Of a stretch of 58,280 bases of DNA, positions 25,697 to 52,404 are shown one piece after another (positions within the stretch are counted from its first letter, which is position 1; the number at the start of each line of letters is the position of its first letter). Made by a program: the position numbers and the translations under genes. The stretch comes from Planotetraspora kaengkrachanensis (GTDB lineage: Bacteria; Actinomycetota; Actinomycetes; Streptosporangiales; Streptosporangiaceae): contig NZ_BONV01000054.1 in assembly GCF_016862895.1 (NCBI RefSeq), forward strand, positions 1 to 58,280, written 5' to 3'. The notes below the pieces were generated by a model, which saw only the letters and a program-made list of their open reading frames with translations, was not told the origin of the DNA and searched no databases.

Positions 25697-26236
25697 CGTG
25701 GCTCCCCCTGTGGTTCGACCTGTGGCTCGAACGGTTGCCCGACCTGTGGCTCGACGAAGAGGTCCATCCGGCGGTGCCGCCTGAAGGGCATCGGCTCTCC
25801 TTGTCGCGCTTCGTGTCGCTCCCGTCGCGCAAATCGTTTTGCCCGCCGAGATCGCGAGAAGTTTTTCCTGGGTGTCGTCCCTTGTCAACGGCTCGGCGCG
25901 ACCCTTGCCGAGGAGACCGCGGCAAGCGGATCGCCGGCCACGACGCCAAGCTCGGCGCCCGCCTCCCCCATTTCGCCGATCCGGTCTGATCGCCCTCACC
26001 CGGCGGCCATGCCGGTTCCGTCTTTTTCCGGTGCTGCGCGAGAAACAGGGATCTAGCATCGAATGAGCGGCGTTGTGCCCAAAATACTAATTAGAGGTTT
26101 ATGGTGAGTTCGCTGGCTAAAGCATTCTGAGTCGTAACCCCAGGGGGCAGCCGTCATGGGGTGACTTCCTGCTAGCGTAAGCCGTCTACCGTCCTCGGCG
26201 GCATTCTCGAATGCCCGTTCGCATTGGTGTGGGATT
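25697..26236. other. Intergenic region upstream of the Fxs cassette
   Basis: About 540 bases between the divergent dehydratase and fxsA genes. The left end holds direct repeats (25707-25754). From about 26060 to 26130 the DNA is distinctly AT-rich (aaaatactaattagaggttt) and probably contains the cassette promoter; I could not assign boxes. No gene recognised. Confidence 0.4.
25707..25754. repeat. Three CCTGTGG(T/C)TCGA direct repeats
   Basis: cctgtggttcga at 25707-25718 and cctgtggctcga at 25719-25730 and 25743-25754. They begin 11 bases upstream of the dehydratase start, in its 5' leader, where a regulator or leader structure could act. Confidence 0.6.
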
Positions 26237-26410
26237 ATGAGCGCTACTGCAATGACGCAGTCCACTGTGGCTTCGAATGTCACGGATCTACGGGACATTC
26301 CGCTGTCCCTCGTCCCCACGTCCGATGTCGACCGTATTCTGGGACGTGTCCTTCCGGAGGTCGTGTCCGTCGAGTCCGTCTCCGTGGCGGCTTTCAACTC
26401 GTCGATCTGA
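26237..26410 (+). CDS. fxsA: FxsA, FxSxx-COOH cyclophane peptide precursor
   Basis: 57 residues. The C-terminus is AAFNSSI, so the last five residues fit the F-x-S-x-x-COOH rule that defines these RiPP precursors. The middle has DLRDIPLSLVP followed by an amphipathic stretch ending GRVLPE, as in other FxsA leaders. In this family the core Phe and Ser are joined by FxsB into a three-residue cyclophane (triceptide). The gene lies 15 bases before the radical SAM maturase gene and should be co-transcribed. The ATG at 26237 lacks a good ribosome-binding site; an internal ATG at codon 6 is possible. The gene is short enough to be missed by gene callers. No cleavage site is evident. Confidence 0.9.
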   Translation: MSATAMTQSTVASNVTDLRDIPLSLVPTSDVDRILGRVLPEVVSVESVSVAAFNSSI

Positions 26411-26425
26411 CCTCTAGGGGGGCCG

Positions 26426-28717
26426 GTGAACGGGCCCTTCCTGCCATTCCGGCAATTCGTACTAAAAGTACACAGCCGATGTGATCTCGCCTGTGATCAC
26501 TGTTATGTCTACGAACATGCCGATCAATCATGGCAGGTACGTCCGAAAGTCATTTCGGATGAAACGGTAACCTGGTCGGCCAGCCGTATGGCGGAACACG
26601 TCAAACGGCACGGCCTCGATCAGGTGCACGTCGTGCTCCACGGCGGCGAGCCGCTTCTCGCCGGCCGGGCCAGGCTGGGACGCGTCATCGCCGAGCTGCG
26701 CGGTCACCTCGACGGGCTGTGTGATCTCGACCTCCGGGTGCACACCAACGGCGTGCTCCTCGACGACGCCTTCCTCGACCTCTTCGCCGAGCACAAGGTG
26801 CTGGTCGGGGTCTCGCTCGACGGCGACCGGGTGGCCAACGACAGGCATCGCCGCTACGCCGACGGCCGCAGCAGCTACGACCGGGTGATCCGGGCCGTCG
26901 AGCTGCTGCGCCGTCGTCGCGACCTGTACGCGGGTCTGCTGTGCACGATCGACGTCGCCAACGACCCGCTCGCCGTCTACCGTGCGCTGGCCGAGCTCGA
27001 CCCGCCGCGCATCGACTTCCTTCTCCCGCACGCCACCTGGGACGTGCCGCCTCCGCGGCCGACCCCGACCGCGTACGCCGACTGGCTCATCCAGATCTTC
27101 GACGTCTGGCTCGACGAGGGCGCCAGGGTGCCGGTGCGCATGTTCGAGTCGATCCTGCGCACCAGCCGGGGAGAGTCCAGCCTCACCGAGTCGCTCGGCC
27201 TCGAACCTTCGGACCTCGTCGTCATCGAGACCGACGGGGCCTACGAACAGGCGGACTCCCTGAAGGTCGCCTTCGACGGCGCGCCCTCGACCGGACTGAA
27301 CGTCGTCACCGACGATCTCGACGCCGTGGCCGCCCACACCGGCGTCCTGGCCCGGCAGCAGGGACTCGGCGGACTGTGCGACACCTGCCGGGCGTGCCCG
27401 GTCGTCGACAGTTGCGGCGGCGGACTGTACGCGCACCGCTACCGGACGGGTTCCGCCTTCGCGAATCCGAGCGTCTTCTCCGCCGACCTCCTCAAGCTCA
27501 TCACTCATGTCAGGCACAGGACCGCCATGCCCACGCACGCCCTGCCGTACGACACGATCGAGGCCCTCGCCGCCGGGTTCGGCGACGAGGCCGACATGAA
27601 GCACCTTCTGGCGGGACAGCGGACGTTGCGCCGCGGGCTTCTGGCCGGAGTGCACGGCCAGGATGGCGCGGCGGACGGATGGGACCTGCTGACCCGGCTC
27701 GACGCGGAGCACCGCGGAGCCGTCGACGTGGTGCTCGACCACCCGTACGTCAGGGAGTGGGCCGCCCGGTGCCTGACCGGCGGGGGGCACCCCGGCTACC
27801 TCGCGAACATCGCCGCGGCGGCCGCGGTCAGGGCGGGCGCCGACGCGGAGATCACGCTGCAGGACGTGGACGGGGTGTTCCACCTCCCGACGCTGGGCGC
27901 GTTCGAAGCGGCGCCTGGCTCCGACGGCCGGCTGCTCGTCAAGGACGAGCGGTTCACGCTGGCGGGGCAACCGGACGCCGTCTGGCATCCCGTGCGGACG
28001 CTGGAGGCGGACGGGTTCACCGTCGTCTTGGAGGACACCGATCCGCACCGCCACTGCCACGGTCACCAGGCGGCGGGACGGCTGTCCGAAGCGGAAGCCG
28101 GCGCATGGCAGCGCGCGTTCACCGTCGCGTGGTCGCTGATCGAGACGGACCACCCGCAGCACGCGGCGGGTTTGCGCGCCGCCCTGTCCACTGTGGTCCC
28201 CCTTGCTCCTCCCGTCGGCGGTGGGGATGTCAGCTCGGCGGCCAGGCACGCGTTCGGCGCCGTCGCCATCGCCCTGCCGGAGGACCCGGCCACGCTCGCG
28301 CTCCTGCTGATGCACGAGTTCCAGCACGTCAAGCTCGGAGCGGTCCTCGACATGGTCGACCTGTACGACCGGCGGCACGCGGGCCTCTATTACGCGCCCT
28401 GGCGTCCGGACCTCCGTCCGCTCGAGGGTCTCCTGCAAGGCACGTATGCCCATTTGGCCGTTTCCGACTTCTGGAGAATGCGGCGTCGCGCCGAGGGTGG
28501 CAGGCCTGAGGTTCAGTTCGCGCTGTGGCGCAAGCACACCGCCGACGCGATCGAATCCCTCGGCGAAACGCAGGCGCTCACTCCTGTTGGCATGCGGTTC
28601 GTGGCGGGGATGCGGCGGTCCGTGGAGCCCTGGCTCGCGGAACCGGTTCCTTCTGCGGCCATCGCCATGGCCGCGGACCTGGCGGAACGGCATCGAACGG
28701 AGTCGGCCGCGCAATAG
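26426..28717 (+). CDS. fxsB: FxsB, radical SAM/SPASM cyclophane-forming maturase with C-terminal HExxH domain
   Basis: 763 residues, GTG start after AGGGGGG. The radical SAM domain (about 8-230) has CxxxCxxC as C19, C23, C26 in RCDLACDHCYVYE, then HGGEPLL (SAM contact) and GVSLDGD. The SPASM-type cluster region has C318, C321, C324 and C330 followed by GGGLYAHRYR. Family enzymes join the aromatic ring of Phe to the beta carbon of a residue two places on, here Phe to Ser in FxsA. From about 400 a second domain ends with H630-E-F-Q-H634, the HExxH motif of a family described as peptide beta-hydroxylases. One polypeptide may thus carry two modification activities. It lies between fxsA and fxsC. 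Confidence 0.93.
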   Translation: MNGPFLPFRQFVLKVHSRCDLACDHCYVYEHADQSWQVRPKVISDETVTWSASRMAEHVKRHGLDQVHVVLHGGEPLLAGRARLGRVIAELRGHLDGLCDLDLRVHTNGVLLDDAFLDLFAEHKVLVGVSLDGDRVANDRHRRYADGRSSYDRVIRAVELLRRRRDLYAGLLCTIDVANDPLAVYRALAELDPPRIDFLLPHATWDVPPPRPTPTAYADWLIQIFDVWLDEGARVPVRMFESILRTSRGESSLTESLGLEPSDLVVIETDGAYEQADSLKVAFDGAPSTGLNVVTDDLDAVAAHTGVLARQQGLGGLCDTCRACPVVDSCGGGLYAHRYRTGSAFANPSVFSADLLKLITHVRHRTAMPTHALPYDTIEALAAGFGDEADMKHLLAGQRTLRRGLLAGVHGQDGAADGWDLLTRLDAEHRGAVDVVLDHPYVREWAARCLTGGGHPGYLANIAAAAAVRAGADAEITLQDVDGVFHLPTLGAFEAAPGSDGRLLVKDERFTLAGQPDAVWHPVRTLEADGFTVVLEDTDPHRHCHGHQAAGRLSEAEAGAWQRAFTVAWSLIETDHPQHAAGLRAALSTVVPLAPPVGGGDVSSAARHAFGAVAIALPEDPATLALLLMHEFQHVKLGAVLDMVDLYDRRHAGLYYAPWRPDLRPLEGLLQGTYAHLAVSDFWRMRRRAEGGRPEVQFALWRKHTADAIESLGETQALTPVGMRFVAGMRRSVEPWLAEPVPSAAIAMAADLAERHRTESAAQ

Positions 28718-28730
28718 GGCCCACCACTTT

Positions 28731-28796
28731 TTCCGGGGTTTCGCGATCGCGCCCTTTCCTCGCAAAGGCCGTGTTTCTATAGTGAAATCCCCGGAA
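28731..28796 (+). promoter_or_regulatory. Inverted repeat that could sequester the fxsC ribosome-binding site
   Basis: ttccggggttt (28731-28741) can pair with aaatccccggaa (28785-28796) over 11 pairs with one bulged base. The right arm includes the first four bases of the fxsC ribosome-binding site GGAAGGAGG (28793-28801). In the fxsB-fxsC mRNA this would form a long-loop hairpin that could limit fxsC translation. Confidence 0.45.
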
Positions 28797-28804
28797 GGAG
28801 GCGG

Positions 28805-30019
28805 ATGGCGACTCCCCAGCCCTCGGCTCAGCCCGCGGGGCCGTACTTCTTCCTCAGCTACGCGCACGTGCCGCCCTACGACATCACGGACGGGGGCGAC
28901 CCCAACCAGTGGGTGGAAAAGCTGTTCAAGGTGCTCTGTGAGCACATCATGCATCTGACCCGGGTGCCGGCCGGATCGGCCGGCTATATGGACCGGGAAT
29001 TACGCGTCGGCGACAACTGGCCGCAGATGCTTTCCGAACGCCTCTCGAGCTGCCGGGTCTTCGTTCCCCTGTACTCGCCGCGCTACTTCGAGAGTGTGCA
29101 TTGCGGCAAGGAATGGGCGGCCTTTCTCGAACGCGCGCCCGGGCACACCGGGCCGACGGCGATCGTGCCCGCCATCTGGGCTCCCATGCGGACGGCGACG
29201 CTTCCGAGAGCGGCGCAGGCGATCCAGTTCAACCACGCCGACCTCGGCGCACGCTACGCGGACGAGGGCTTCTACGGGATCATGAAGCTCAGCAAGTACC
29301 GCAACCAGTACCAGCAGGCGACCATGGGCCTGGCCCAGCGGATCATCGAGGTGGCCGAGTCTTCGCCCATGCCGTACGGCAAGATCCGCGACTACACGTC
29401 CGTGCCGACCGCGTTCACCGGCCACACGCCGGAACGCCCGGTCACCGTCACCGTCGTCGCCCCCGACCTGCGCCACCTGCCCGAGGGGCGGGACGCCTAC
29501 CACTACGGGCGCACACCGTACGAGTGGGACCCGTTCCGCACCCGCAACGGGATGCGCCCCCTCGCCGACTGCGCGGTGGACGTGGCACGTTCCCGCGGCT
29601 ACCTGCCCGAGGTCGGCACGCTCGACGATCACGGCGGCGAACTCGCCGCGGAGAGCCCGCACGCTCCGGGAGTGATGCTCGTCGACCCCTGGGCCACCAC
29701 ACAGGAGCAGTGCCAGGAGTCGCTGGTGTCGGTGAACCGGCCGGGACGGCAGTGGATCTCCGTCATGGTCCCGTGGAACCGCGACGACCAGGAGACCGTC
29801 GAGCACGAGCCGCGGCTGAAGGGGCACCTCAGGGAGGCGCTCGGGCACAAGCTGGCCGAGCCGGCCGCCGAGCCCGACGTGCGGAGCCTGGAGGCGTTCC
29901 GGAGTCTTCTGCCCGACGCCCTGCACAAGGCCACCCAGCAGTACTTCAAGCACGCCCCCGCGTACCCACCCGAGGGCGCGAGAGTCGACAGACCCCGGCT
30001 GATCGGGCCAGAGGAGTAG
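28805..30019 (+). CDS. fxsC: FxsC, TIR-like protein of the FxSxx-COOH system
   Basis: 404 residues, starting 3 bases after a strong GGAAGGAGG. The N-terminal TIR-like domain (about 10-150) opens with YFFLSYAHVPPYD and continues with CRVFVPLYSPRYFES and C100-G-K-E103-W, where E103 is placed like the catalytic Glu of TIR NAD-hydrolases. The rest (about 190-400) has RPVTVTVVAPDLRHLPEGRD and YGRTPYEWDPFR, a domain specific to FxsC proteins. No signal or membrane segment. Known FxsC proteins accompany FxsB, but their role is not established; TIR domains act in NAD signalling or as protein scaffolds. Its stop is 2 bases before fxsT. Confidence 0.9.
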   Translation: MATPQPSAQPAGPYFFLSYAHVPPYDITDGGDPNQWVEKLFKVLCEHIMHLTRVPAGSAGYMDRELRVGDNWPQMLSERLSSCRVFVPLYSPRYFESVHCGKEWAAFLERAPGHTGPTAIVPAIWAPMRTATLPRAAQAIQFNHADLGARYADEGFYGIMKLSKYRNQYQQATMGLAQRIIEVAESSPMPYGKIRDYTSVPTAFTGHTPERPVTVTVVAPDLRHLPEGRDAYHYGRTPYEWDPFRTRNGMRPLADCAVDVARSRGYLPEVGTLDDHGGELAAESPHAPGVMLVDPWATTQEQCQESLVSVNRPGRQWISVMVPWNRDDQETVEHEPRLKGHLREALGHKLAEPAAEPDVRSLEAFRSLLPDALHKATQQYFKHAPAYPPEGARVDRPRLIGPEE

Positions 30020-30021
30020 CG

Positions 30022-33000
30022 ATGAGCGAGGGCCGGATCGTCACCTTCTACTCGTACAAAGGCGGCACCGGACGCACGATGGCGCTGGCGAACACGGCAT
30101 GGATCCTCGCCAGCAGCGGCAAGCGGGTCCTGGTCGTCGACTGGGACCTGGAGTCACCCGGCCTGCACAAGTTCTTCCGGCCGTTCCTGGACAGCGGGCT
30201 GGTGGCGACGACCTCGGGGGTCATCGACCTCATCACGACCTACCAGTGGGCGGCCATGAAGCGGGAGGCCCGCTCACGCGAGTGGCACAAGCAGTACGCG
30301 CGCGTCGAGCCGCACGCCGTTTCGCTGGAATTCGAGTTCCCCGGTGAGGGCACGCTCGACTTCATCTCGGCCGGCCGGCAGAACCGTGACTACTCCTCCC
30401 TGGTCTCGGGTTTCGACTGGGACACCTTCTACGAGCGCCAGGGCGGCGGCCAGTTCTTCGACGCGCTGCGCGAGGACATGAAGGCCTGCTACGACTACGT
30501 GCTGATCGACAGCCGCACCGGACTGAGCGACATCGCGGAGATCTGCACCGTCCAGATGCCCGACGTCCTCGTGGCCTGCTTCACCCTGTCCGACCAGGGC
30601 ATCGAGGGAACCTCCTCGGTGGCGCGCCACATCGATGACCGCTACGGCGACCGCAACATCCGCATCCTGCCCGTCCCCATGCGCATCGAGACGGGGGAGA
30701 AGGAGAAATGCGACGCCGGACGTGGTCTGGCCAGGCGCAGGTTCGACAAGTTCCCGCGCGGGATGTCCCCGGAGCAGCTCCATCAGTACTGGGGCGCGGT
30801 GGAGATCCCGTACATGCCCTTCTACGCCTTCGAGGAGATCCTGGCCACCTTCGGCGACGAACCGAACCGGCCCAGCTCGATACTCGCCGCCTTCGAACGG
30901 CTGACCGGCATGATCACCGAAGGGGAGGTCACCTCCTTCCCTCCGATCGAGGAGCCCACCCGGACCCGTTACCTGGACTCCTTCACCCGCCGCCATCCCG
31001 CACACCAGACCGACGTCTACCTCAGTTACACGGCGAAGGACCGGATGTGGACGGACTGGATCGCCGCCCTGCTGGACCGGCACGGTTACCGGGTGACCCT
31101 GCGTGAGGTCGACTCCGAGGACGCGATGGACTTCGCGGGCGACGCGCCCCGCACGGTCGTGGTGCTCTCCGACGCCTACATCCGCTCCTCGCGCAGCCAC
31201 GAGGTCTGGCAGTGGCTCACCAACGCCGAAGGCTCCGTCCGCGGTGAGCTGATCCCGATCCGGGTGTCGGAATCGCACTTCCCCTCGCCCTTCGGCGACC
31301 GCGCGCTCTCCGACCTCACCAGGATCTCCGAGCAGGCGGCCGCGGAGCGGGTGCTCAAGGCGTTCGGACGGCCGGACGAGGGACAGCCGCCGGACACGGC
31401 GGGGCTCGGCGCCCGCTACCCCGGAAGCGTCCCCGCGGTCTGGAACGTCTCCGACCGCAACGCCGTCTTCACCGGCCGGGGGGCCGTCCTGGACGAACTG
31501 CGCGACCAGTTGGTCGGCGGCAGCTCGGCGGTGGTCCTCCCGCAGGCGCTCTACGGCCTGGGCGGCGTGGGCAAGACCCAGGTGGCGCTGGAGTACGCCC
31601 ACCGCTTCCGCGCCGACTACGACCTGGTCTGGTGGATCTCGTCGGAGGACCGCGAACGCATCAACGCGGCGTTCGAGGAGCTGGCCCGCCAGCTGCACAT
31701 TCCGGTCGCCGACAACATCGCGGAAGTCGTCGCCGCCGTGCGCGAGTCCCTGCGTCTGGGCGAGCCGTTCGGCCGCTGGCTCCTGATATTCGACAACGCC
31801 GGGGATCCCGACGACCTGAGAGGCTTCTTCCCCGGCGGCTCCTCGGGCCACATCCTGATCACCTCGCGCAACCAGGCGTGGTCGGCCGTCGCGGCCCCCC
31901 TCGAGGTGGACGTCTTCAGCCAGGAGGAGAGCCTGGAACACCTCAGCCGCCGGGTGCCTGGGCTGGCTCCGGCCGAGGCGATCCGGGTGGCCGAAGCGCT
32001 GGGGAACCTGCCGCTCGCCGTCGAGCAGGCCGCCGCGTGGCTGGCGGAGACCGGCATTCCCGCCGTGACCTTCCTCGAACAGCTCGAGACGGAGGCCGCC
32101 CGGGTGTTGTCGCTGAGCCAGCCGGCCGACTATCCCCACCCGGTCGCCGTGACCTGGAACCTGTCGCTCGGGCAGCTCCAGGAGAGCTCGCCCGCGTCGG
32201 TGCGGCTGCTTCAGCTGTGCGCGTTCTTCGCGCCGGAACCGATCTCGATGCAGCTCCTGTACAGCGACGAGATGACCGATTCGCTGCTCCCTTACGACGA
32301 CACCCTGCGCGAGAAGCTGGTCCTCGGCCGCGTGATCCAGGAGATCGGCAGGTTCGCCCTGGCCAAGGCCGACCAGGCCAACAACACGATCCAGGTGCAC
32401 CGGCTGGTGCAGGCGGTCATCCGCAGCCAGATGACACAGGAGGAACAGGACCAGGCCTGTCATGAGGTCCACCGCATCCTCGTGGGCGCGAGGCCGCGTC
32501 AGGGCGACGTCGACGACCCGGAGAACTGGATCCGCTACGACCTGATCTGGCAGCACCTGCAGCCTTCCCGCGCGACCGAGTGCACGGAGGAGGAGACCCG
32601 GCAGTTGCTCACCGACCGGGTGCGGTACCTCTGGAAGCGCGGCGACTTCGACAGCGCCCTCGCGCTGGGCGACCGTCTCGCCAACTTCTGGGAGGACGTG
32701 TTCGGCATCCACGACAGGCAGCGGCTCCACCTGCTGTTCAACGTGGCGAACGTGAAGCGGTCGCAGGGCAAGTACGAGGAGGCGCGCGAACTCGACGAAT
32801 GGGTCAGGCAGCAGCAGCTGCAGGTCGTCGGGGAGCGCCATCCGCACACGCTGATGACCGCCGGCGGACTGGGGGCCGACCTGCGCGGTCTCGGCGACTA
32901 CCAGAGCGCGCTTGAACTGGACCAGGTGACCTACCAGCAGTGGAAGACACTGTTCGGTCAGGACCATCCGCGGACCCTCGCCTCGGCCAACAACCTCGCG

Positions 33001-33912
33001 CTCGGGTACCGCCTGGTCGGCGACGCGGCCAGCGCCCGCGACCTCGACCACGACACCCGCCAGCGCCGCATGAGGGTGCTCGGCCCCAACCATCCCTACA
33101 CCCTGTTCTCCGCTGCCCAGCTGGCCCGTGACCTGCGGGAGATGGGCAGGTACCGCGAGTCGGTCGACCTGCTGCGGACCACGCTCCAGCACTACCGGGA
33201 GTCGCTCGGCGAGTCCTTCGTCGACACGTTGCGCGCGGCCAAGAGCCTCGCCGTCTCGCTCCGCAGGGCGGGCGAGCAGCAGGAGGCGTGGAACCTGGCG
33301 AAGGACACCGACGAGAGGTACTCGCAGCGGTACGCGGGCACCCCCGACGCGCTCGCGGCGCGGCTCGAGCTCGCCTGCTGCATGTCGGCTCTGGGCGACA
33401 AGAGCGGGGCGCGGGACCTGGCCGGCGAGATCGCCCGGATCTACCAGGACACGCTGGGCGTCGACCACCCGGGAACGCTGATCGCCCAGAACAACCTGGC
33501 CATCTACCTCCGCGGGACCGGCGAGGCCGGCAAAGCGAGCGACGTCGCGAGGGTGTCGTACGAGGGGCTGTACTCCCAGCTGGGGTCGGATCACCCGTTC
33601 ACGTTGTCGGCGGCGATCAATCTCGCCAACTGCTTGGGTGACGAGGAGCGACTGGACGAGGCGGAGGCGCTGGAACGGCGGACGCTGGCCGATCTGCGCA
33701 CGAAACTGGGCGAGAGTCATCCCGACACGCTCGCCTGCGAGGCCAATCTGGCGGTGACGCTGTGGTCCGCCGGCCGGACCGCCCAGGCCGAGCGCGTCCG
33801 CGCCCGCCTGCTCCCCATCAACAGCCGGATCCTGGGTGACAACCACCCGACTCTGGCGTACCTCAGGGAGTGGCGGCGGACCAACAGGGACCTCGAGCCG
33901 CAGCCGTTCTGA
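30022..33912 (+). CDS. fxsT: FxsT, ParA-like/TIR/NB-ARC/TPR protein of the FxSxx-COOH system
   Basis: 1296 residues from the ATG at 30022; the frame is open upstream to 29101 but that part lies inside fxsC. Domains: a MinD/ParA-like deviant P-loop, K13-GGTGRT-19, with DWDLESPGLHKFF, typical of SIMIBI ATPases (1 to about 310). A TIR-like domain begins near 331 (DVYLSYTAKDRMWTDWI). NB-ARC follows: GLGGVGKT at 512-519, Walker B-like LLIFDNAGD with D591, and GNLPLAVEQAAAWL. From about 900 to 1290 there are tetratricopeptide repeats of the type ANVKRSQGKYEEARELDE. The layout resembles STAND/NLR-like sensors with two nucleotide-binding domains. The role in this system is not known; it probably senses or is gated by the peptide. 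It ends 2 bases from the convergent hydrolase. Confidence 0.92.
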   Translation: MSEGRIVTFYSYKGGTGRTMALANTAWILASSGKRVLVVDWDLESPGLHKFFRPFLDSGLVATTSGVIDLITTYQWAAMKREARSREWHKQYARVEPHAVSLEFEFPGEGTLDFISAGRQNRDYSSLVSGFDWDTFYERQGGGQFFDALREDMKACYDYVLIDSRTGLSDIAEICTVQMPDVLVACFTLSDQGIEGTSSVARHIDDRYGDRNIRILPVPMRIETGEKEKCDAGRGLARRRFDKFPRGMSPEQLHQYWGAVEIPYMPFYAFEEILATFGDEPNRPSSILAAFERLTGMITEGEVTSFPPIEEPTRTRYLDSFTRRHPAHQTDVYLSYTAKDRMWTDWIAALLDRHGYRVTLREVDSEDAMDFAGDAPRTVVVLSDAYIRSSRSHEVWQWLTNAEGSVRGELIPIRVSESHFPSPFGDRALSDLTRISEQAAAERVLKAFGRPDEGQPPDTAGLGARYPGSVPAVWNVSDRNAVFTGRGAVLDELRDQLVGGSSAVVLPQALYGLGGVGKTQVALEYAHRFRADYDLVWWISSEDRERINAAFEELARQLHIPVADNIAEVVAAVRESLRLGEPFGRWLLIFDNAGDPDDLRGFFPGGSSGHILITSRNQAWSAVAAPLEVDVFSQEESLEHLSRRVPGLAPAEAIRVAEALGNLPLAVEQAAAWLAETGIPAVTFLEQLETEAARVLSLSQPADYPHPVAVTWNLSLGQLQESSPASVRLLQLCAFFAPEPISMQLLYSDEMTDSLLPYDDTLREKLVLGRVIQEIGRFALAKADQANNTIQVHRLVQAVIRSQMTQEEQDQACHEVHRILVGARPRQGDVDDPENWIRYDLIWQHLQPSRATECTEEETRQLLTDRVRYLWKRGDFDSALALGDRLANFWEDVFGIHDRQRLHLLFNVANVKRSQGKYEEARELDEWVRQQQLQVVGERHPHTLMTAGGLGADLRGLGDYQSALELDQVTYQQWKTLFGQDHPRTLASANNLALGYRLVGDAASARDLDHDTRQRRMRVLGPNHPYTLFSAAQLARDLREMGRYRESVDLLRTTLQHYRESLGESFVDTLRAAKSLAVSLRRAGEQQEAWNLAKDTDERYSQRYAGTPDALAARLELACCMSALGDKSGARDLAGEIARIYQDTLGVDHPGTLIAQNNLAIYLRGTGEAGKASDVARVSYEGLYSQLGSDHPFTLSAAINLANCLGDEERLDEAEALERRTLADLRTKLGESHPDTLACEANLAVTLWSAGRTAQAERVRARLLPINSRILGDNHPTLAYLREWRRTNRDLEPQPF

Positions 33913-33914
33913 CG

Positions 33915-34781
33915 TCAGGCGGCCGACAGCCAGGACAGCACGTCGGGCATGACGCGGAGGGCGCCGAAATGCGCGGCGCCCTCCTGGATCACGACTCGGG
34001 CGCCCGGAATCTGCTCGCCGAGCCAGCGGCAGTGGTCGACGGGTGAGAACACGTCCTCGTCGCCGTGCCACAAGAATGTCGGCACCGAGATGTCCGCCGG
34101 TTCGAATCCCCACGGGGTGCTGAACGCCAGGGCGTCGTCGATCCAACCGGCCGCGGAATTTCGCAGGGCCTCGGCGAAATTGTCGGCGAGCATCGACCGG
34201 ATTCCGAAATCCGCCATGACGTGCCTGTCGTTTTCCGGTAGGTCCTCGTCGAAGGCCGGGACCAGCCGGGTCGGATCCGCCCGGATCCGCTCCACCGCCG
34301 GGGAGAGCAGTTCCGTCATCGCGGCGTGGCCGCTCTCCGCGGCCTTGTATTCGCTGACGTTGGACGGCGTCATGCCGTTGAACCAGTCCAGCCCTTCCGC
34401 CTCCCGGGGCGCCAGCGGGACGAGGGCGGCCGCCCTCGTCGTCCGCTCCGGCAGCAGCCCGGCGCAGGCCAGCGCGTGCGGAGCCCCGCCGGAGCGGCCG
34501 ATCACCGCGAAACTGTCGATGCGCAGGGCGTCGGCGATGGCCTCCACGTCCGCGGCGGCGTCCGCGACGGTACGACCCCTCCTCCGGTCGGACAGGCCGT
34601 ATCCGGGACGGTCGTAACTGATCAGTTTGATGCCGAGCCGATAGAGCACCGACGCGCGCGGAAACGGCCCCAACCTGCTCCCTGGTGTGCCGTGTAACAG
34701 GAAGACCGGGCTTCCGTCTGGCTCACCCCTCTCGTCGACCGCCAGTGTCCGTCCGTCATGAGCCTTCACGAAGCTCGTCAA
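33915..34781 (-). CDS. Alpha/beta hydrolase
   Basis: 288 residues. Standard alpha/beta hydrolase fold: oxyanion motif LLHGTPGSRLG (about 28), nucleophile elbow GRSGGAPHALA (about 95) with Ser between the glycines, the acid in WHGDEDVFSP (about 238) and the catalytic His in GAAHFGALR (about 268). SYDRPGYGLSD is typical of the haloalkane dehalogenase/esterase branch, but the usual dehalogenase nucleophile Asp is Ser here, so an esterase or lipase-like activity is more likely. It converges on fxsT with a 2-base gap and shares no strand with the cassette, so there is no reason to place it in that system. Confidence 0.88.
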   Translation of the reverse strand: MTSFVKAHDGRTLAVDERGEPDGSPVFLLHGTPGSRLGPFPRASVLYRLGIKLISYDRPGYGLSDRRRGRTVADAAADVEAIADALRIDSFAVIGRSGGAPHALACAGLLPERTTRAAALVPLAPREAEGLDWFNGMTPSNVSEYKAAESGHAAMTELLSPAVERIRADPTRLVPAFDEDLPENDRHVMADFGIRSMLADNFAEALRNSAAGWIDDALAFSTPWGFEPADISVPTFLWHGDEDVFSPVDHCRWLGEQIPGARVVIQEGAAHFGALRVMPDVLSWLSAA

Positions 34782-50164: not shown

Positions 50165-50346
50165 ATCCCCGGCGGGTTAGGCCCAGGGCATATCCGTAGG
50201 AAAGGGGCATAAGAAGGTGACCGTTCCTCGCGTCCACAGTGCGGGACACGGCGGGACGTAATACCCTCAGGCGACGAGCAGGCGGGGTCCTGTCCGGCCC
50301 GCTCGTCCCCCATACAGCCCAGCGAGCACCTGGATACGCTGACATC

Positions 50347-52404
50347 ATGAGCACCCCTGGTCGGGCAGCCCAGCGACGTAAGACGTCGCATGTTCTGGCG
50401 ATAGCGCCGTTCCGCAGGATCTGGACGGCGATGGGGGTGTGCAGCCTCGGCGACTGGCTCAACATCATCGCGCTGACGGCTCTCGCGGGTAACCTCACCC
50501 AAGGCTCGGGCTTCCAGGCGCAGAGCCTGGCCGTCGGAGGCGTCTTCGTCGCCAAGATGCTGCCCGCGATCCTGCTCGGGCCGATCGCCGGGACGGTGGC
50601 CGACCGCTTCGACCGTCGCCTGACGATGGTCGTGGCCGACGTCGTCAGATTCGCCGTGGTGTTGTCGATTCCGCTGGTCGGCAGCTACCAGTGGGTGCTC
50701 ATCGCCGCGTTCCTGGTGGAATGCGTCAACCTCTTCTGGGTGCCGGCGAAGGACGCGACCGTCCCCAACCTGGTGCCCAAGGAGAAGCTGGAGGAGGCCA
50801 ACCAGTTCAACCTCCTGGTCACCTACGGCACCGCCCCCGTCGCCGCCGCCCTGTTCGCCGTCGTGTCCGCGCTGACGAGCATGGTGACGACCGCCTTCCC
50901 CGCATCCGGAGTGCAGCCGACCGACCTGACGCTCGGCATCAACGCCGTCGCCTACCTGGCCTCGGCCGTCCTGATCTTCACGTTGCGGAGCATCCCCAAG
51001 GACCACACCCGCCAGGCCTCCACCGCCTCCGTCCTCGGGCAGATCGTGGACGGCTGGCGCTTCGTCGGCGGCAACCGGGTCGTCAAGGGCCTGATCATCG
51101 GAATGCTCGGCGCGTTCGCCGCCGGTGGCGCGGTCGTCGGCGTCGGAAAGGCGTATGTCAGCGCCCTGCACGGGGGCGACGCGGGATACGGCGCGGTCTT
51201 CTGCGCGGTGTTCCTCGGCATGGGCCTCGGGATGTTCTTCGGTCTGCGCCTGCTCGGCGGGCTCTCCCGGCGCCGCATGTTCGGGCTGTCCATCATCGTG
51301 GCCGGGCTGACTCTCGCGGCCATCGCGTTGATCCACGACCTCGTGATCGTCGTCATGCTGACCGTGCTCCTCGGAGCCTGCGCCGGCATCGCCTGGATCA
51401 TCGGCTACACGATGATCGGGCTGGAGGTCGAGGACGCGCTGCGTGGCCGTACCTTCTCCTTCCTGCAGTCGATGGCGCGCGTCGTGCTGCTGGTGGTCGT
51501 GGCCGTGGCCTCGGGTCTGGCCGCCGTCTTCGGCCTGCACGTCCTCACCATCGGCGGGATCAGCTACCAGTTCGACGGCTCCAACGTGGTGCTCCTGATC
51601 GCCGCCCTGCTGGCCGTGATCGTGGGACTGCTCGCGTTCAGGCACATGGACGACCGCCGGGGGATCCCGATCGGCGTCGACCTCATGGCGGCGCTGAAGG
51701 GCGAGAAGTTCGTTCCGGAAACCGAGGAGCAGCCCCGCGGGTTCTTCGTAGCGTTCGAAGGCGGCGAGGGCTCGGGCAAGACCACCCAGTCGCGCCTGCT
51801 CGCCATCTGGCTGCGTGACCAGGGCTTCGACGTCGTCCAGACCCGGGAGCCCGGCTCGACCAAGGTCGGCATGCGGCTTCGGGCCATCCTGCTCGACGCG
51901 ACCCACCAGGGCCTGTCCGCCCGCTCGGAGACCCTGCTGTACGCCGCCGACCGGGCCGAGCACGTCGAGAAGGTCATCCGCCCCGCTCTTCAGCGGGGAT
52001 CCACCGTCGTGACGGACCGCTATGTCGACTCGTCCCTGGCCTACCAGGGGGCCGGGCGGGCTCTCGACCCCGAGGAGGTCGCCCAGATCAACTCGTGGGC
52101 GACTGGCGGGTTGGTGCCCGACCTGACCGTCCTGATCGATGTGCCTCCGTCGGTCGGGCTGCGCCGGATGGCCTCTCCCGCCGACCGGATCGAGGCCGAG
52201 CCCCTGGAGTTCCACGAGCGGGTCCGGCGGGAGTTCCGGGCGCTGGCCGCCGCGGCCCCCGACCGGTATCTCGTGGTCGACGGAACGCTCGCGCAGGCCG
52301 AGGTGTCCCGCGTCATCCAGGATCGGGTCAGGGAGATCCTCCCCGACCCCGTCCCCCACGAGGCCGAAGCCGCCACCGGCACCATCCCCGCCATCCGCGA
52401 CTGA
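50347..52404 (+). CDS. tmk: MFS transporter fused to thymidylate kinase
   Basis: 685 residues from the ATG at 50347. Residues about 20-445 form a 12-helix major facilitator domain with the DR-R motif GTVADRFDRRLTM. Residues about 465-670 are thymidylate kinase: P-loop GGEGSGKT at 472-479, TREPGSTKVGMRLR, the DRY motif VTDRYVDSSLAYQGAG and the lid region SPADRIEAEPLEF. dTMP kinase makes dTDP for DNA synthesis. The fusion places the enzyme on the inner face of the membrane. As I recall Streptomyces has the same fusion near topA and holB. The transported substrate is unknown. The end is followed by a 0.5-kb repeat array. Confidence 0.93.
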   Translation: MSTPGRAAQRRKTSHVLAIAPFRRIWTAMGVCSLGDWLNIIALTALAGNLTQGSGFQAQSLAVGGVFVAKMLPAILLGPIAGTVADRFDRRLTMVVADVVRFAVVLSIPLVGSYQWVLIAAFLVECVNLFWVPAKDATVPNLVPKEKLEEANQFNLLVTYGTAPVAAALFAVVSALTSMVTTAFPASGVQPTDLTLGINAVAYLASAVLIFTLRSIPKDHTRQASTASVLGQIVDGWRFVGGNRVVKGLIIGMLGAFAAGGAVVGVGKAYVSALHGGDAGYGAVFCAVFLGMGLGMFFGLRLLGGLSRRRMFGLSIIVAGLTLAAIALIHDLVIVVMLTVLLGACAGIAWIIGYTMIGLEVEDALRGRTFSFLQSMARVVLLVVVAVASGLAAVFGLHVLTIGGISYQFDGSNVVLLIAALLAVIVGLLAFRHMDDRRGIPIGVDLMAALKGEKFVPETEEQPRGFFVAFEGGEGSGKTTQSRLLAIWLRDQGFDVVQTREPGSTKVGMRLRAILLDATHQGLSARSETLLYAADRAEHVEKVIRPALQRGSTVVTDRYVDSSLAYQGAGRALDPEEVAQINSWATGGLVPDLTVLIDVPPSVGLRRMASPADRIEAEPLEFHERVRREFRALAAAAPDRYLVVDGTLAQAEVSRVIQDRVREILPDPVPHEAEAATGTIPAIRD

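What the first reader, a model, noticed from the sequence alone, without database searches (positions are those of the whole stretch)
26237..33912. Complete FxsA-FxsB-FxsC-FxsT cassette linking a cyclophane RiPP to a TIR/NB-ARC/TPR protein
Four genes in tight order (gaps of 15, 87 and 2 bases) encode an FxSxx-COOH precursor, a radical SAM maturase, a TIR-like protein and a ParA-like/TIR/NB-ARC/TPR protein. The first two make a modified peptide; the last two have the domain set of NLR-like immune or developmental sensors. No transporter or protease lies in the cassette, so the peptide may act inside the cell as a ligand for FxsT or FxsC. Family identity is known; the ligand idea is inference.
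Basis: partly seen in the sequence, partly recalled or inferred. Interest (0 to 1): 0.92.

Follow-up and report, generated by a model that had tools for sequence, protein, structure and literature searches.

The report
Cyclophane peptide cassette with TIR proteins
A soil actinomycete carries a known kind of gene cassette that makes a small cross-linked peptide beside two immune-type proteins; comparison with relatives adds a fifth, overlooked enzyme gene and suggests which protein senses and which one acts.

Summary
In detail: 26237-33912 encodes FxsA, FxsB, FxsC and FxsT with gaps of 15, 87 and 2 bases. All four are named NCBIfam families, though FxsA scores under its cut-off. Kaur et al. 2020 described stand-alone systems of this type and proposed a toxin or signal role for the peptide. 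So this is a new member of a known kind.

New here: (1) An alpha/beta hydrolase gene at 33915-34781(-), tail-to-tail with fxsT, was missed. It is in 93 of 105 dereplicated FxsC loci, and in 29 of 30 FxsC-positive against 4 of 90 FxsC-negative family genomes. (2) FxsC keeps the TIR catalytic-position glutamate in 104 of 104; FxsT has it in 1 of 99. (3) In three VMAP-type loci the FxsC domain ends a large fusion protein, where effectors may sit. (4) 57 of 105 loci have a SLATT gene, 46 of them with a SLOG-type gene; SLATT_3 was not found in five of five Planotetraspora genomes.

Best reading: cytosolic cyclophane peptide -> FxsT switch -> FxsC NADase. The ligand step is unproven.

The parts
26170..26236 (+). 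Upstream region of fxsA with two conserved blocks: TAGCGT...TACCG or similar, and GTTCGCATTGG just before the start codon
   Evidence: Alignment of 7 upstream regions from Planotetraspora, Microbispora and Streptosporangium: TAGCGT columns invariant in 7; GTTCGCATTGG in the 6 that reach it. Function not tested.
26237..26410 (+). fxsA: 57-aa RiPP precursor with C-terminal FNSSI; leader part contains DLRDIPLSLV
   Evidence: TIGR04268 22.3 bits, under cut-off 28; matching precursors in 94 of 98 loci with FxsB
26426..28717 (+). fxsB: radical SAM/SPASM cyclophane synthase (about residues 8-365) fused to an aKG-HExxH beta-hydroxylase-type domain (HEFQH present)
   Evidence: PDB relatives ChlB 9gm3 (6e-85) and 22nu (2e-77, region 365-742); CxxxCxxC kept 94/94, HExxH kept 43/94 (4 of 98 FxsB under 600 aa left out)
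28805..30019 (+). fxsC: N-terminal TIR domain with conserved catalytic-position Glu103, plus a C-terminal alpha/beta domain (about 211-383)
   Evidence: E103 104/104 (1 of 105 left out as short); AlphaFold2 pLDDT 86.6; Foldseek top hit a plant TIR domain (RUN1), others RPV1 and RPS4, flavodoxins further down; best E 1.3e-3, none at or below 0.001
30022..33912 (+). fxsT: ParA-like domain with K-to-R P-loop (about 1-300), degenerate TIR (328-450), NB-ARC switch (477-810), kinesin-light-chain-like TPR array (about 860-1290)
   Evidence: motif conservation over 99 sequences (3 of 102 left out as short); GAGGAG before the start overlaps the fxsC stop region (by eye)
33915..34781 (-). Fifth, overlooked member: alpha/beta hydrolase (288 aa), convergent with fxsT, two bases between the genes; catalytic triad S97/D243/H271 kept
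   Evidence: 93 of 105 dereplicated FxsC loci, 84 of them tail-to-tail within 300 bp, overlaps included; 29/30 vs 4/90 genomes, Fisher p 2e-22; S97 in 92 of 93 (one gap), D243 and H271 in 93 of 93; PDB 9wlv 1.5e-51

Best explanation
The locus is a five-gene Fxs system. (1) FxsB joins the ring of the C-terminal Phe of FxsA to the side chain of Ser two residues on, giving a small cyclophane at the free C-terminus, and may hydroxylate a residue through its HExxH domain [family chemistry reported elsewhere; here inferred]. (2) The peptide stays in the cytosol and is read by FxsT: the TPR array or its surroundings hold it, and the NB-ARC ATPase switches state when the peptide's amount, form or integrity changes [inferred]. 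(3) Activated FxsT, through its degenerate TIR and ParA-like domain, gathers FxsC; FxsC's intact TIR cleaves NAD+ or makes an ADP-ribose signal, stopping the cell [active-site conservation and effector-like fusions shown; activity inferred]. (4) The hydrolase next door processes the peptide or clears the peptide or signal [linkage shown by comparison; role inferred]. In many relatives a SLOG-SLATT pair may read the signal and act at the membrane [association shown; SLATT_3 not found in this genus].
For: Gene identity. Effector versus sensor: FxsC catalytic-position Glu in 104/104; FxsT the same column V/L/I in 74 of 99, Glu in 1. In 3 of 3 fusion loci examined (L184, L185, L071) an FxsC domain with the Glu kept ends a 931-1524-aa protein right behind VMAP-domain and AAA genes, with no FxsB or FxsT match on the stretch. 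NB-ARC P-loop Lys518, Asp591, Arg616, Pro664 and His793 99/99 (for numbering). The C-terminal pentapeptide keeps one pattern from Planotetraspora to Streptomyces: where residues 2, 4 and 5 were free, the hits that are not false by eye end in I, L, V or F. TPRs are closest to kinesin light chain, a known peptide binder (binding recalled). Hydrolase linkage. Linked divergence over 86 loci: FxsC-FxsT r 0.98, hydrolase with FxsC or FxsT 0.94, FxsB with the others 0.88-0.89 (includes shared ancestry). Related FxsB/FxsT loci in the same genome carry SIR2 genes instead of FxsC; the one tested is ThsA-like.
Against: No binding, modification or NAD cleavage was tested. A fixed C-terminus is also expected if only FxsB constrains it. 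Sister FxsB loci mostly show no FxSxx peptide just upstream (4 of 39 FxsB-matching ORFs had one, one of them L078), so FxsT-type proteins may not need this peptide. One cassette (L078) keeps FxsA, FxsB, FxsT and the hydrolase but no detectable FxsC, so FxsC is not always required. The hydrolase also occurs without a Fxs match in 2 of 90 FxsC-negative genomes' counts (G450 has only distant FxsB genes, G465 none listed). FxsC's Foldseek E-values do not reach 0.001. PADLOC has no hit for FxsC or the hydrolase; FxsT's ParA-like part hits a candidate defence family PDC-M28B (3e-23) and FxsB hits viperins weakly.
Confidence: 0.42

Rival explanations
1. Integrity-token rival: the unmodified rather than the modified peptide is the trigger. 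FxsB depends on SAM, Fe-S clusters, reducing power and, in part, aKG and O2; when a phage or stress disturbs these, FxsA stays linear and releases FxsT, which fires FxsC.
For: The rSAM cysteines are 94/94 conserved while HExxH is lost in 51/94, so the cyclophane step is the constant one; fxsA lies first in a same-strand gene run.
Against: Nothing here tells modified from unmodified peptide as the bound form.
Confidence: 0.25
2. Exported signal or bacteriocin rival: the peptide leaves the cell by a general exporter and acts on other cells or on mycelial development; FxsC and FxsT are immunity or response proteins.
For: Many RiPPs are exported (established knowledge). A gene cluster whose scanned member has trypsin and alpha-lytic-prodomain hits lies near 45 of 105 loci, 44 of them on the Streptomycetaceae side. 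Transport-related neighbours exist in a minority: MFS type 11 of 105, solute-binding type 8 of 105.
Against: No transport gene was seen at high frequency in both families' loci (one cluster in 29 loci unidentified). The core varies little. FxsC also occurs without the peptide genes as a fused domain.
Confidence: 0.15
3. Developmental or programmed-death rival on the biological role (not exclusive of the mechanism): same biochemistry, used for hyphal differentiation or cell death in the colony, not against phages.
For: In the genus the cassette sits among the same neighbours in 4 of 5 genomes; topoisomerase and thymidylate kinase genes lie in the same window; GC is not foreign; no phage record of 50,697 holds FxsC at E 1e-10.
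Against: Patchy in the family (FxsC in 30 of 120 genomes, 29 over the cut-off) and linked to conflict-type modules: SLOG-SLATT, VMAP fusions, SIR2 in some sister systems.
Confidence: 0.35
4. The hydrolase is a neighbour kept by chance or by local synteny, not a system member.
For: It is on the opposite strand, and its nearest solved relative is named an ester hydrolase (9wlv).
Against: Kept beside FxsT in two families whose other neighbours mostly differ; still within about 7 kb in six Streptomyces where the A-B-C-T block looks inverted between its flanks; genome co-occurrence 29/30 vs 4/90; not seen in 22 of 22 sister loci (stretches of up to 20 kb).
Confidence: 0.1

Closest known systems
Stand-alone FxSxx peptide-processing system with AP-ATPase and inactive MinD/ParA-like domain (Kaur et al. 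2020, eLife 9:e52696; section 24 read in full; other passages)
   Same: FxSxx precursor, radical SAM-SPASM enzyme, HExxH-type ('zincin-like') part, AP-ATPase-TPR with an additional ParA-like domain, actinobacteria
   Different: What I read treats the HExxH part as a peptidase and names neither an active TIR in FxsC beside a degenerate one in FxsT, nor the tail-to-tail hydrolase, nor a SLOG-SLATT link here. SLATT and alpha/beta hydrolases are mentioned for other systems. The paper's figures and source data were not seen.
Triceptides / three-residue cyclophane enzymes (MscB, XncB, OscB; review PMC11002830, passages) and ChlB/ChlBH (preprint PMC12636437, passages)
   Same: Radical SAM/SPASM enzymes; MscB makes Phe C4 to Ser C-beta; ChlBH joins rSAM and aKG-HExxH hydroxylase
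   Different: Only chemistry is reported in the passages seen; no receptor or effector. That MscB's family IPR026335 is FxsB-type is recalled.
Thoeris (TIR maker, SLOG-sensing ThsA)
   Same: TIR protein with SLOG-type or SIR2 genes around relatives; the SLOG model matches the ThsA SLOG structure (7uxs, 4.6e-4, rank 23), and one sister-system SIR2 matches ThsA (7e-22)
   Different: No ThsA or ThsB architecture; an NB-ARC protein and a RiPP are added; SLATT_3 not found in the window's genus
VMAP (MoxR-vWA) ternary conflict systems
   Same: FxsC domain ends the third protein of VMAP-type loci in 3 of 3 fusion loci scanned
   Different: No MoxR, vWA or VMAP hit among the window neighbours scanned; not every window gene was scanned
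TIR-NLR resistosomes of plants
   Same: TIR plus NB-ARC plus repeat logic; FxsC TIR is closest by fold to RUN1, RPV1 and RPS4
   Different: Enzyme TIR and switch are on separate proteins, and the switch carries a ParA-like domain and TPRs

Membership tests
FxsA / FxSxx-COOH (TIGR04268) | C-terminal F-x-S-x-x | tested here: met
   FNSSI at the C-terminus
FxsA / FxSxx-COOH (TIGR04268) | Profile score over curated cut-off | tested here: not met
   22.3 bits vs 28; described as FxsA on motif and position only, with 94 of 98 matching relatives
FxsB (TIGR04269) | Profile over cut-off, CxxxCxxC and SPASM-region cysteines | tested here: met
   583 bits vs 370; CxxxCxxC and three SPASM-region cysteines 94/94
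aKG-HExxH peptide hydroxylase (TIGR04267) | Domain score and HExxH | tested here: met
   165.5 bits vs 40; HEFQH in the window protein
Triceptide | Three-residue cyclophane on the peptide | not testable with these tools
   Needs mass spectrometry or NMR
FxsC (NF040588, TIGR04276) | Both domain profiles over cut-off | tested here: met
   195.8 vs 130 and 138.5 vs 55
FxsT (NF040586) | Profile over cut-off | tested here: met
   1058.7 vs 300
Active TIR NADase (FxsC) | Catalytic Glu after S..Y..S | tested here: met
   E103, 104 of 104; that this is the catalytic position is recalled knowledge of TIR domains; activity not tested
Active TIR NADase (FxsT) | Catalytic Glu after S..Y..S | tested here: not met
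   V395 in the window protein; Glu in 1 of 99
NB-ARC / STAND switch (FxsT) | Walker A Lys, Walker B Asp, sensor Arg, GxP | tested here: met
   each 99 of 99
ParA-type ATPase (FxsT N-terminus) | Deviant Walker A with Lys at the GK position | tested here: not met
   Arg18, 99 of 99; matches the KGGVGR variant family NF047398
Kaur stand-alone FxSxx peptide-processing system | Precursor + rSAM-SPASM and HExxH part + AP-ATPase-TPR with ParA-like domain | tested here: met
   against the text
VMAP ternary system | MoxR, vWA and VMAP genes beside the cassette | tested here: inconclusive
   none among the window proteins scanned with Pfam or NCBIfam; not every window gene was scanned
Thoeris | ThsA (SIR2-SLOG) beside a TIR gene | tested here: not met
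   no such profile in FxsB, FxsC, FxsT or the hydrolase
Anti-phage defence system | Protection from phage | not testable with these tools
   needs plaque assays

The most novel reading that the evidence does not exclude
A bacterial NLR-like switch guarded by a self-made modified peptide: the cyclophane on FxsA is a cytosolic password that FxsT reads continuously; loss or change of the cyclophane, or its cleavage, lets FxsT assemble FxsC into an NAD-consuming complex, the hydrolase sets the peptide or signal level, and in many relatives the TIR product opens a SLATT membrane effector through a SLOG sensor. It would be a RiPP with an immune receptor as its only target.
Probability: 0.28. Interest if true: 0.92.

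Novelty: new member of a known kind. Interest (0 to 1): 0.55.

Why it matters
Many radical-SAM peptides are mined as antibiotics. If this one is an internal ligand for an NLR-type switch, a class of orphan RiPPs has a function that screening of culture media cannot find. The comparison makes the question testable: it names the likely enzyme residue (FxsC E103), the likely switch residue (FxsT K518), a fifth gene to include in any reconstitution, and natural variants to compare (HExxH lost, FxsC lost, SLOG-SLATT present).

Tried and rejected
A guessed family accession was wrong and told nothing. HExxH as leader peptidase: rejected as a general rule, since HExxH is missing in 51 of 94 FxsB proteins of FxsC-bearing loci. 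FxsT TIR as the enzyme: rejected by residue. Recent mobile-island origin: GC is even; place and neighbours are kept in 4 of 5 genus genomes; 0 of 50,697 phage records and 5 of 72,556 plasmid records hold FxsC, and the two of these five that I opened are VMAP-type fusions, not cassettes. Link between HExxH loss and Ala at position -2 of the peptide: seen (Ala in 40 of 50 HExxH-minus, 7 of 42 HExxH-plus) but confounded with family: on the Streptosporangiaceae side HExxH-minus has 4 Ser and 1 Ala. Peptide of sister (type-B) loci: none recognised upstream by eye or pattern. SLATT_3 in this genus: 0 of 5 genomes, while the same search rings in 5 of 5 relatives chosen because their cassettes have it. 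The structural second-look library was not available. A broken or partial FxsB (L051) was not pursued. Papers: FxSxx occurs in 3 held papers; only Kaur et al. concerns this, the other two judged by title. Listings for Fxs gene names (20 of 107 papers listed), cyclophane/RiPP/NB-ARC (20 of 72), SLATT with radical SAM, TIR, tetratricopeptide (10 of 17), SLATT/SLOG/TIR (7 of 9) and radical SAM/NB-ARC/antiphage/RiPP/NLR (12 of 24) showed, in the rows listed, nothing that ties the hydrolase or an FxSxx ligand test to this system; subscription papers are mostly not held.

Full report
Observation. The four ORFs and their gaps are as reported. FxsC has GGAAGGAGG before its start, and FxsT is preceded by GAGGAG overlapping the end of fxsC; both read by eye. 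NCBIfam names all four: FxsB, FxsC and FxsT are over their cut-offs, FxsA is under it. Pfam adds TIR_2 in FxsC, and TIR_2, NB-ARC and TPR in FxsT. Named relatives at 90-91% FxsC identity are Planotetraspora mira and P. silvatica, so I take the genus to be Planotetraspora; the species was not determined.

Spread. FxsC is found in 3 of 346 genomes drawn from the phylum (E up to 1e-8), FxsB (up to 1e-100) in 10 of 346, FxsT (up to 1e-150) in 11 of 346. In the family, FxsB is in 71 of 120 and FxsC in 30 of 120, 29 over the cut-off. A pattern-based scan of 84,980 species genomes gave 384 stretches encoding FxsC relatives, of which the best 80 were kept; counts on named loci are on these 80. In the genus, 5 of 5 genomes hold a long FxsT; in 4 of 5 the cassette has the same neighbours, and G004 has a divergent one (52% FxsB, 57% FxsT) with an added AAC(3)-like gene and a 62% identical hydrolase.

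Fifth gene. I clustered the proteins around 118 FxsC loci, 105 after removing copies with the same FxsC stretch. Besides FxsB, FxsC and FxsT, the only gene near almost all loci of both families is an alpha/beta hydrolase: 93 of 105, 84 of them tail-to-tail with fxsT within 300 bp, overlaps included. Of the 12 misses, one is an ORF-caller miss (L065: the genome's hydrolase is found), one is a FxsC fusion locus (L071), and several are short or cut by contig ends; some (such as L118, L128, L144) I did not look into. In six Streptomyces loci (L127, L129, L136, L145, L158, L161) the hydrolase lies upstream; in five of these SLATT lies downstream (none called in L136), as if the A-B-C-T block were inverted between its flanks. 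At 300 bits or more the hydrolase is in 29 of 30 FxsC-positive and 4 of 90 FxsC-negative family genomes (Fisher p 2e-22, not corrected for shared ancestry; the two searches are taken to have drawn the same 120 genomes). Two of those four, G351 and G414, have Fxs loci; G450 and G465 do not have a near FxsB. By coordinates, in 28 of the 30 it lies within about 5 kb of FxsC (compared by hand). Ser97 is kept in 92 of 93 (one gap), Asp243 and His271 in 93 of 93. Its nearest solved relative is called a pimeloyl-ACP methyl ester carboxylesterase (9wlv, 1.5e-51); proline iminopeptidases are among weaker hits. Its substrate is unknown.

Two unlike TIR domains. In FxsC the Glu 12 residues after the conserved Ser of S..Y..S (E103) is present in 104 of 104. 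In FxsT the same column (V395 in the window) is Val, Leu or Ile in 74 of 99 and Glu in 1 of 99; the column before has Glu in 40 of 99, so even with an alignment shift of one the site would be degenerate. FxsT's TIR is its fastest part: mean identity to the window protein over 48 Streptomycetaceae-side sequences is 39% TIR, 46% TPR, 63% NB-ARC, 70% ParA-like. The ParA-like domain, which Kaur et al. call inactive (their reason not seen), is the most conserved part, with Arg18 in place of the P-loop Lys and Asp40, Asp42 and Asp163 in 99 of 99. FxsC modelled with 53 sequences has pLDDT 86.6 and pTM 0.64. Its best Foldseek hits are plant TIR domains, including NAD-bound RUN1, with E just above 0.001; flavodoxins also appear, and I take them as the C-terminal domain, which the output does not show directly.

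FxsC as an effector. On two plasmids opened, of five with FxsC hits, the FxsC domain ends a protein of 1524 or 1337 aa behind genes with VMAP-M2 or VMAP-C and AAA domains; chromosomal locus L071 shows a 931-aa fusion behind VMAP-C and AAA genes. The active-site Glu is kept in all three, and no FxsB or FxsT match lies on these stretches. No vWA domain reached E 0.001 in these fusions; that they are the vWA component is inferred from position. Kaur et al. state that effector domains are fused to the vWA protein or coded separately.

Accessory genes. An AAC(3)-type acetyltransferase is near 29 of 105 loci; in 22 it lies between fxsB and fxsC, in five more my ORF call starts up to about 180 bases inside the FxsB match, one lies elsewhere and one has no FxsB on the stretch. 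A SLATT gene is near 57 and a SLOG-type gene near 49, both in 46; SLATT_3/SLATT_1 were confirmed on members from two loci. The SLOG identity rests on a model (pLDDT 93.7) whose Foldseek hits are YpsA (9e-10), DprA, ShosA, LOG and the ThsA SLOG domain. In five relatives picked for having it, SLATT_3 is found once per genome, at the cassette; in 5 of 5 Planotetraspora none reached 1e-8. So SLATT_3 is unlikely to be part of the mechanism in the window's strain.

Sister systems. The same genome has two more FxsB-type genes with short FxsT proteins (no TIR or ParA hit) beside SIR2 and nSTAND1-TPR genes. Among 22 loci with such a short FxsT, 19 have the nSTAND1 gene and 7 the SIR2 gene (my ORF caller may miss some); FxsC and the hydrolase were not seen on these stretches. 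The SIR2 protein of L035 matches ThsA (7e-22).

Chemistry. Radical SAM cysteines are kept in 94 of 94 FxsB, HExxH in 43 of 94; the window keeps it. A review states that MscB joins Phe C4 to Ser C-beta, and a preprint states that an rSAM-fused HExxH enzyme hydroxylates Asp and His on a cyclophane scaffold. One original paper was looked for and is not held.

Mechanism and limits. Shown: gene content, fifth-gene linkage, active-site pattern, VMAP fusions. Inferred: cyclophane in this peptide, cytosolic action, FxsT as reader, TIR-TIR recruitment, NAD cleavage, hydrolase role. Against: no binding data; one cassette (L078) without FxsC; sister systems without a recognised FxSxx peptide.

Noticed in passing
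L035 and L036 (own genome G000:C37, about 109-128 kb): Two more FxsB-type loci, each with a short NB-ARC-TPR protein, a SIR2 gene (the L035 one is ThsA-like; the other not tested with PADLOC) and an nSTAND1-TPR gene; no FxSxx peptide recognised upstream.
   Followed up: partly
L184, L185 (plasmids), L071: FxsC domain fused at the C-terminal end of large proteins behind VMAP and AAA genes, with no FxsB or FxsT match on the stretch.
   Followed up: yes
46 of 105 FxsC loci, e.g. L056:13783-15196(-): SLOG-type gene near a SLATT two-TM gene beside the Fxs cassette; SLATT_3 not found in five Planotetraspora genomes.
   Followed up: partly
L040:14405-15352(-), L112:7651-8439(+): AAC(3)-type N-acetyltransferase gene between fxsB and fxsC in many relatives; possible peptide-modifying or unrelated function.
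   Followed up: partly
L078 (G351:C41): Cassette with FxsA, FxsB, FxsT and hydrolase but no detectable FxsC; its FxsT TIR region is strongly degenerate.
   Followed up: partly
window:43286-45238(+): 651-aa protein with seven ChpA-C (chaplin) matches, an unusually high number as far as I recall.
   Followed up: no
window:26170-26236: Two short blocks conserved upstream of fxsA in three genera; Streptomyces relatives show, by eye, a different upstream pattern with a recurrent TAAAGT box (output partly cut).
   Followed up: partly
9 loci including L059, L061, L062, L107: Cluster about 7.7 kb downstream of FxsC whose one scanned member (L107) is an nSTAND1-TPR protein, suggesting that the two kinds of Fxs system can lie together.
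   Followed up: no
window:45942-48713(+), 50239-52401(+): Topoisomerase gene and a thymidylate kinase fused to an MFS-like domain in the same window, pointing to a stable chromosomal place.
   Followed up: no
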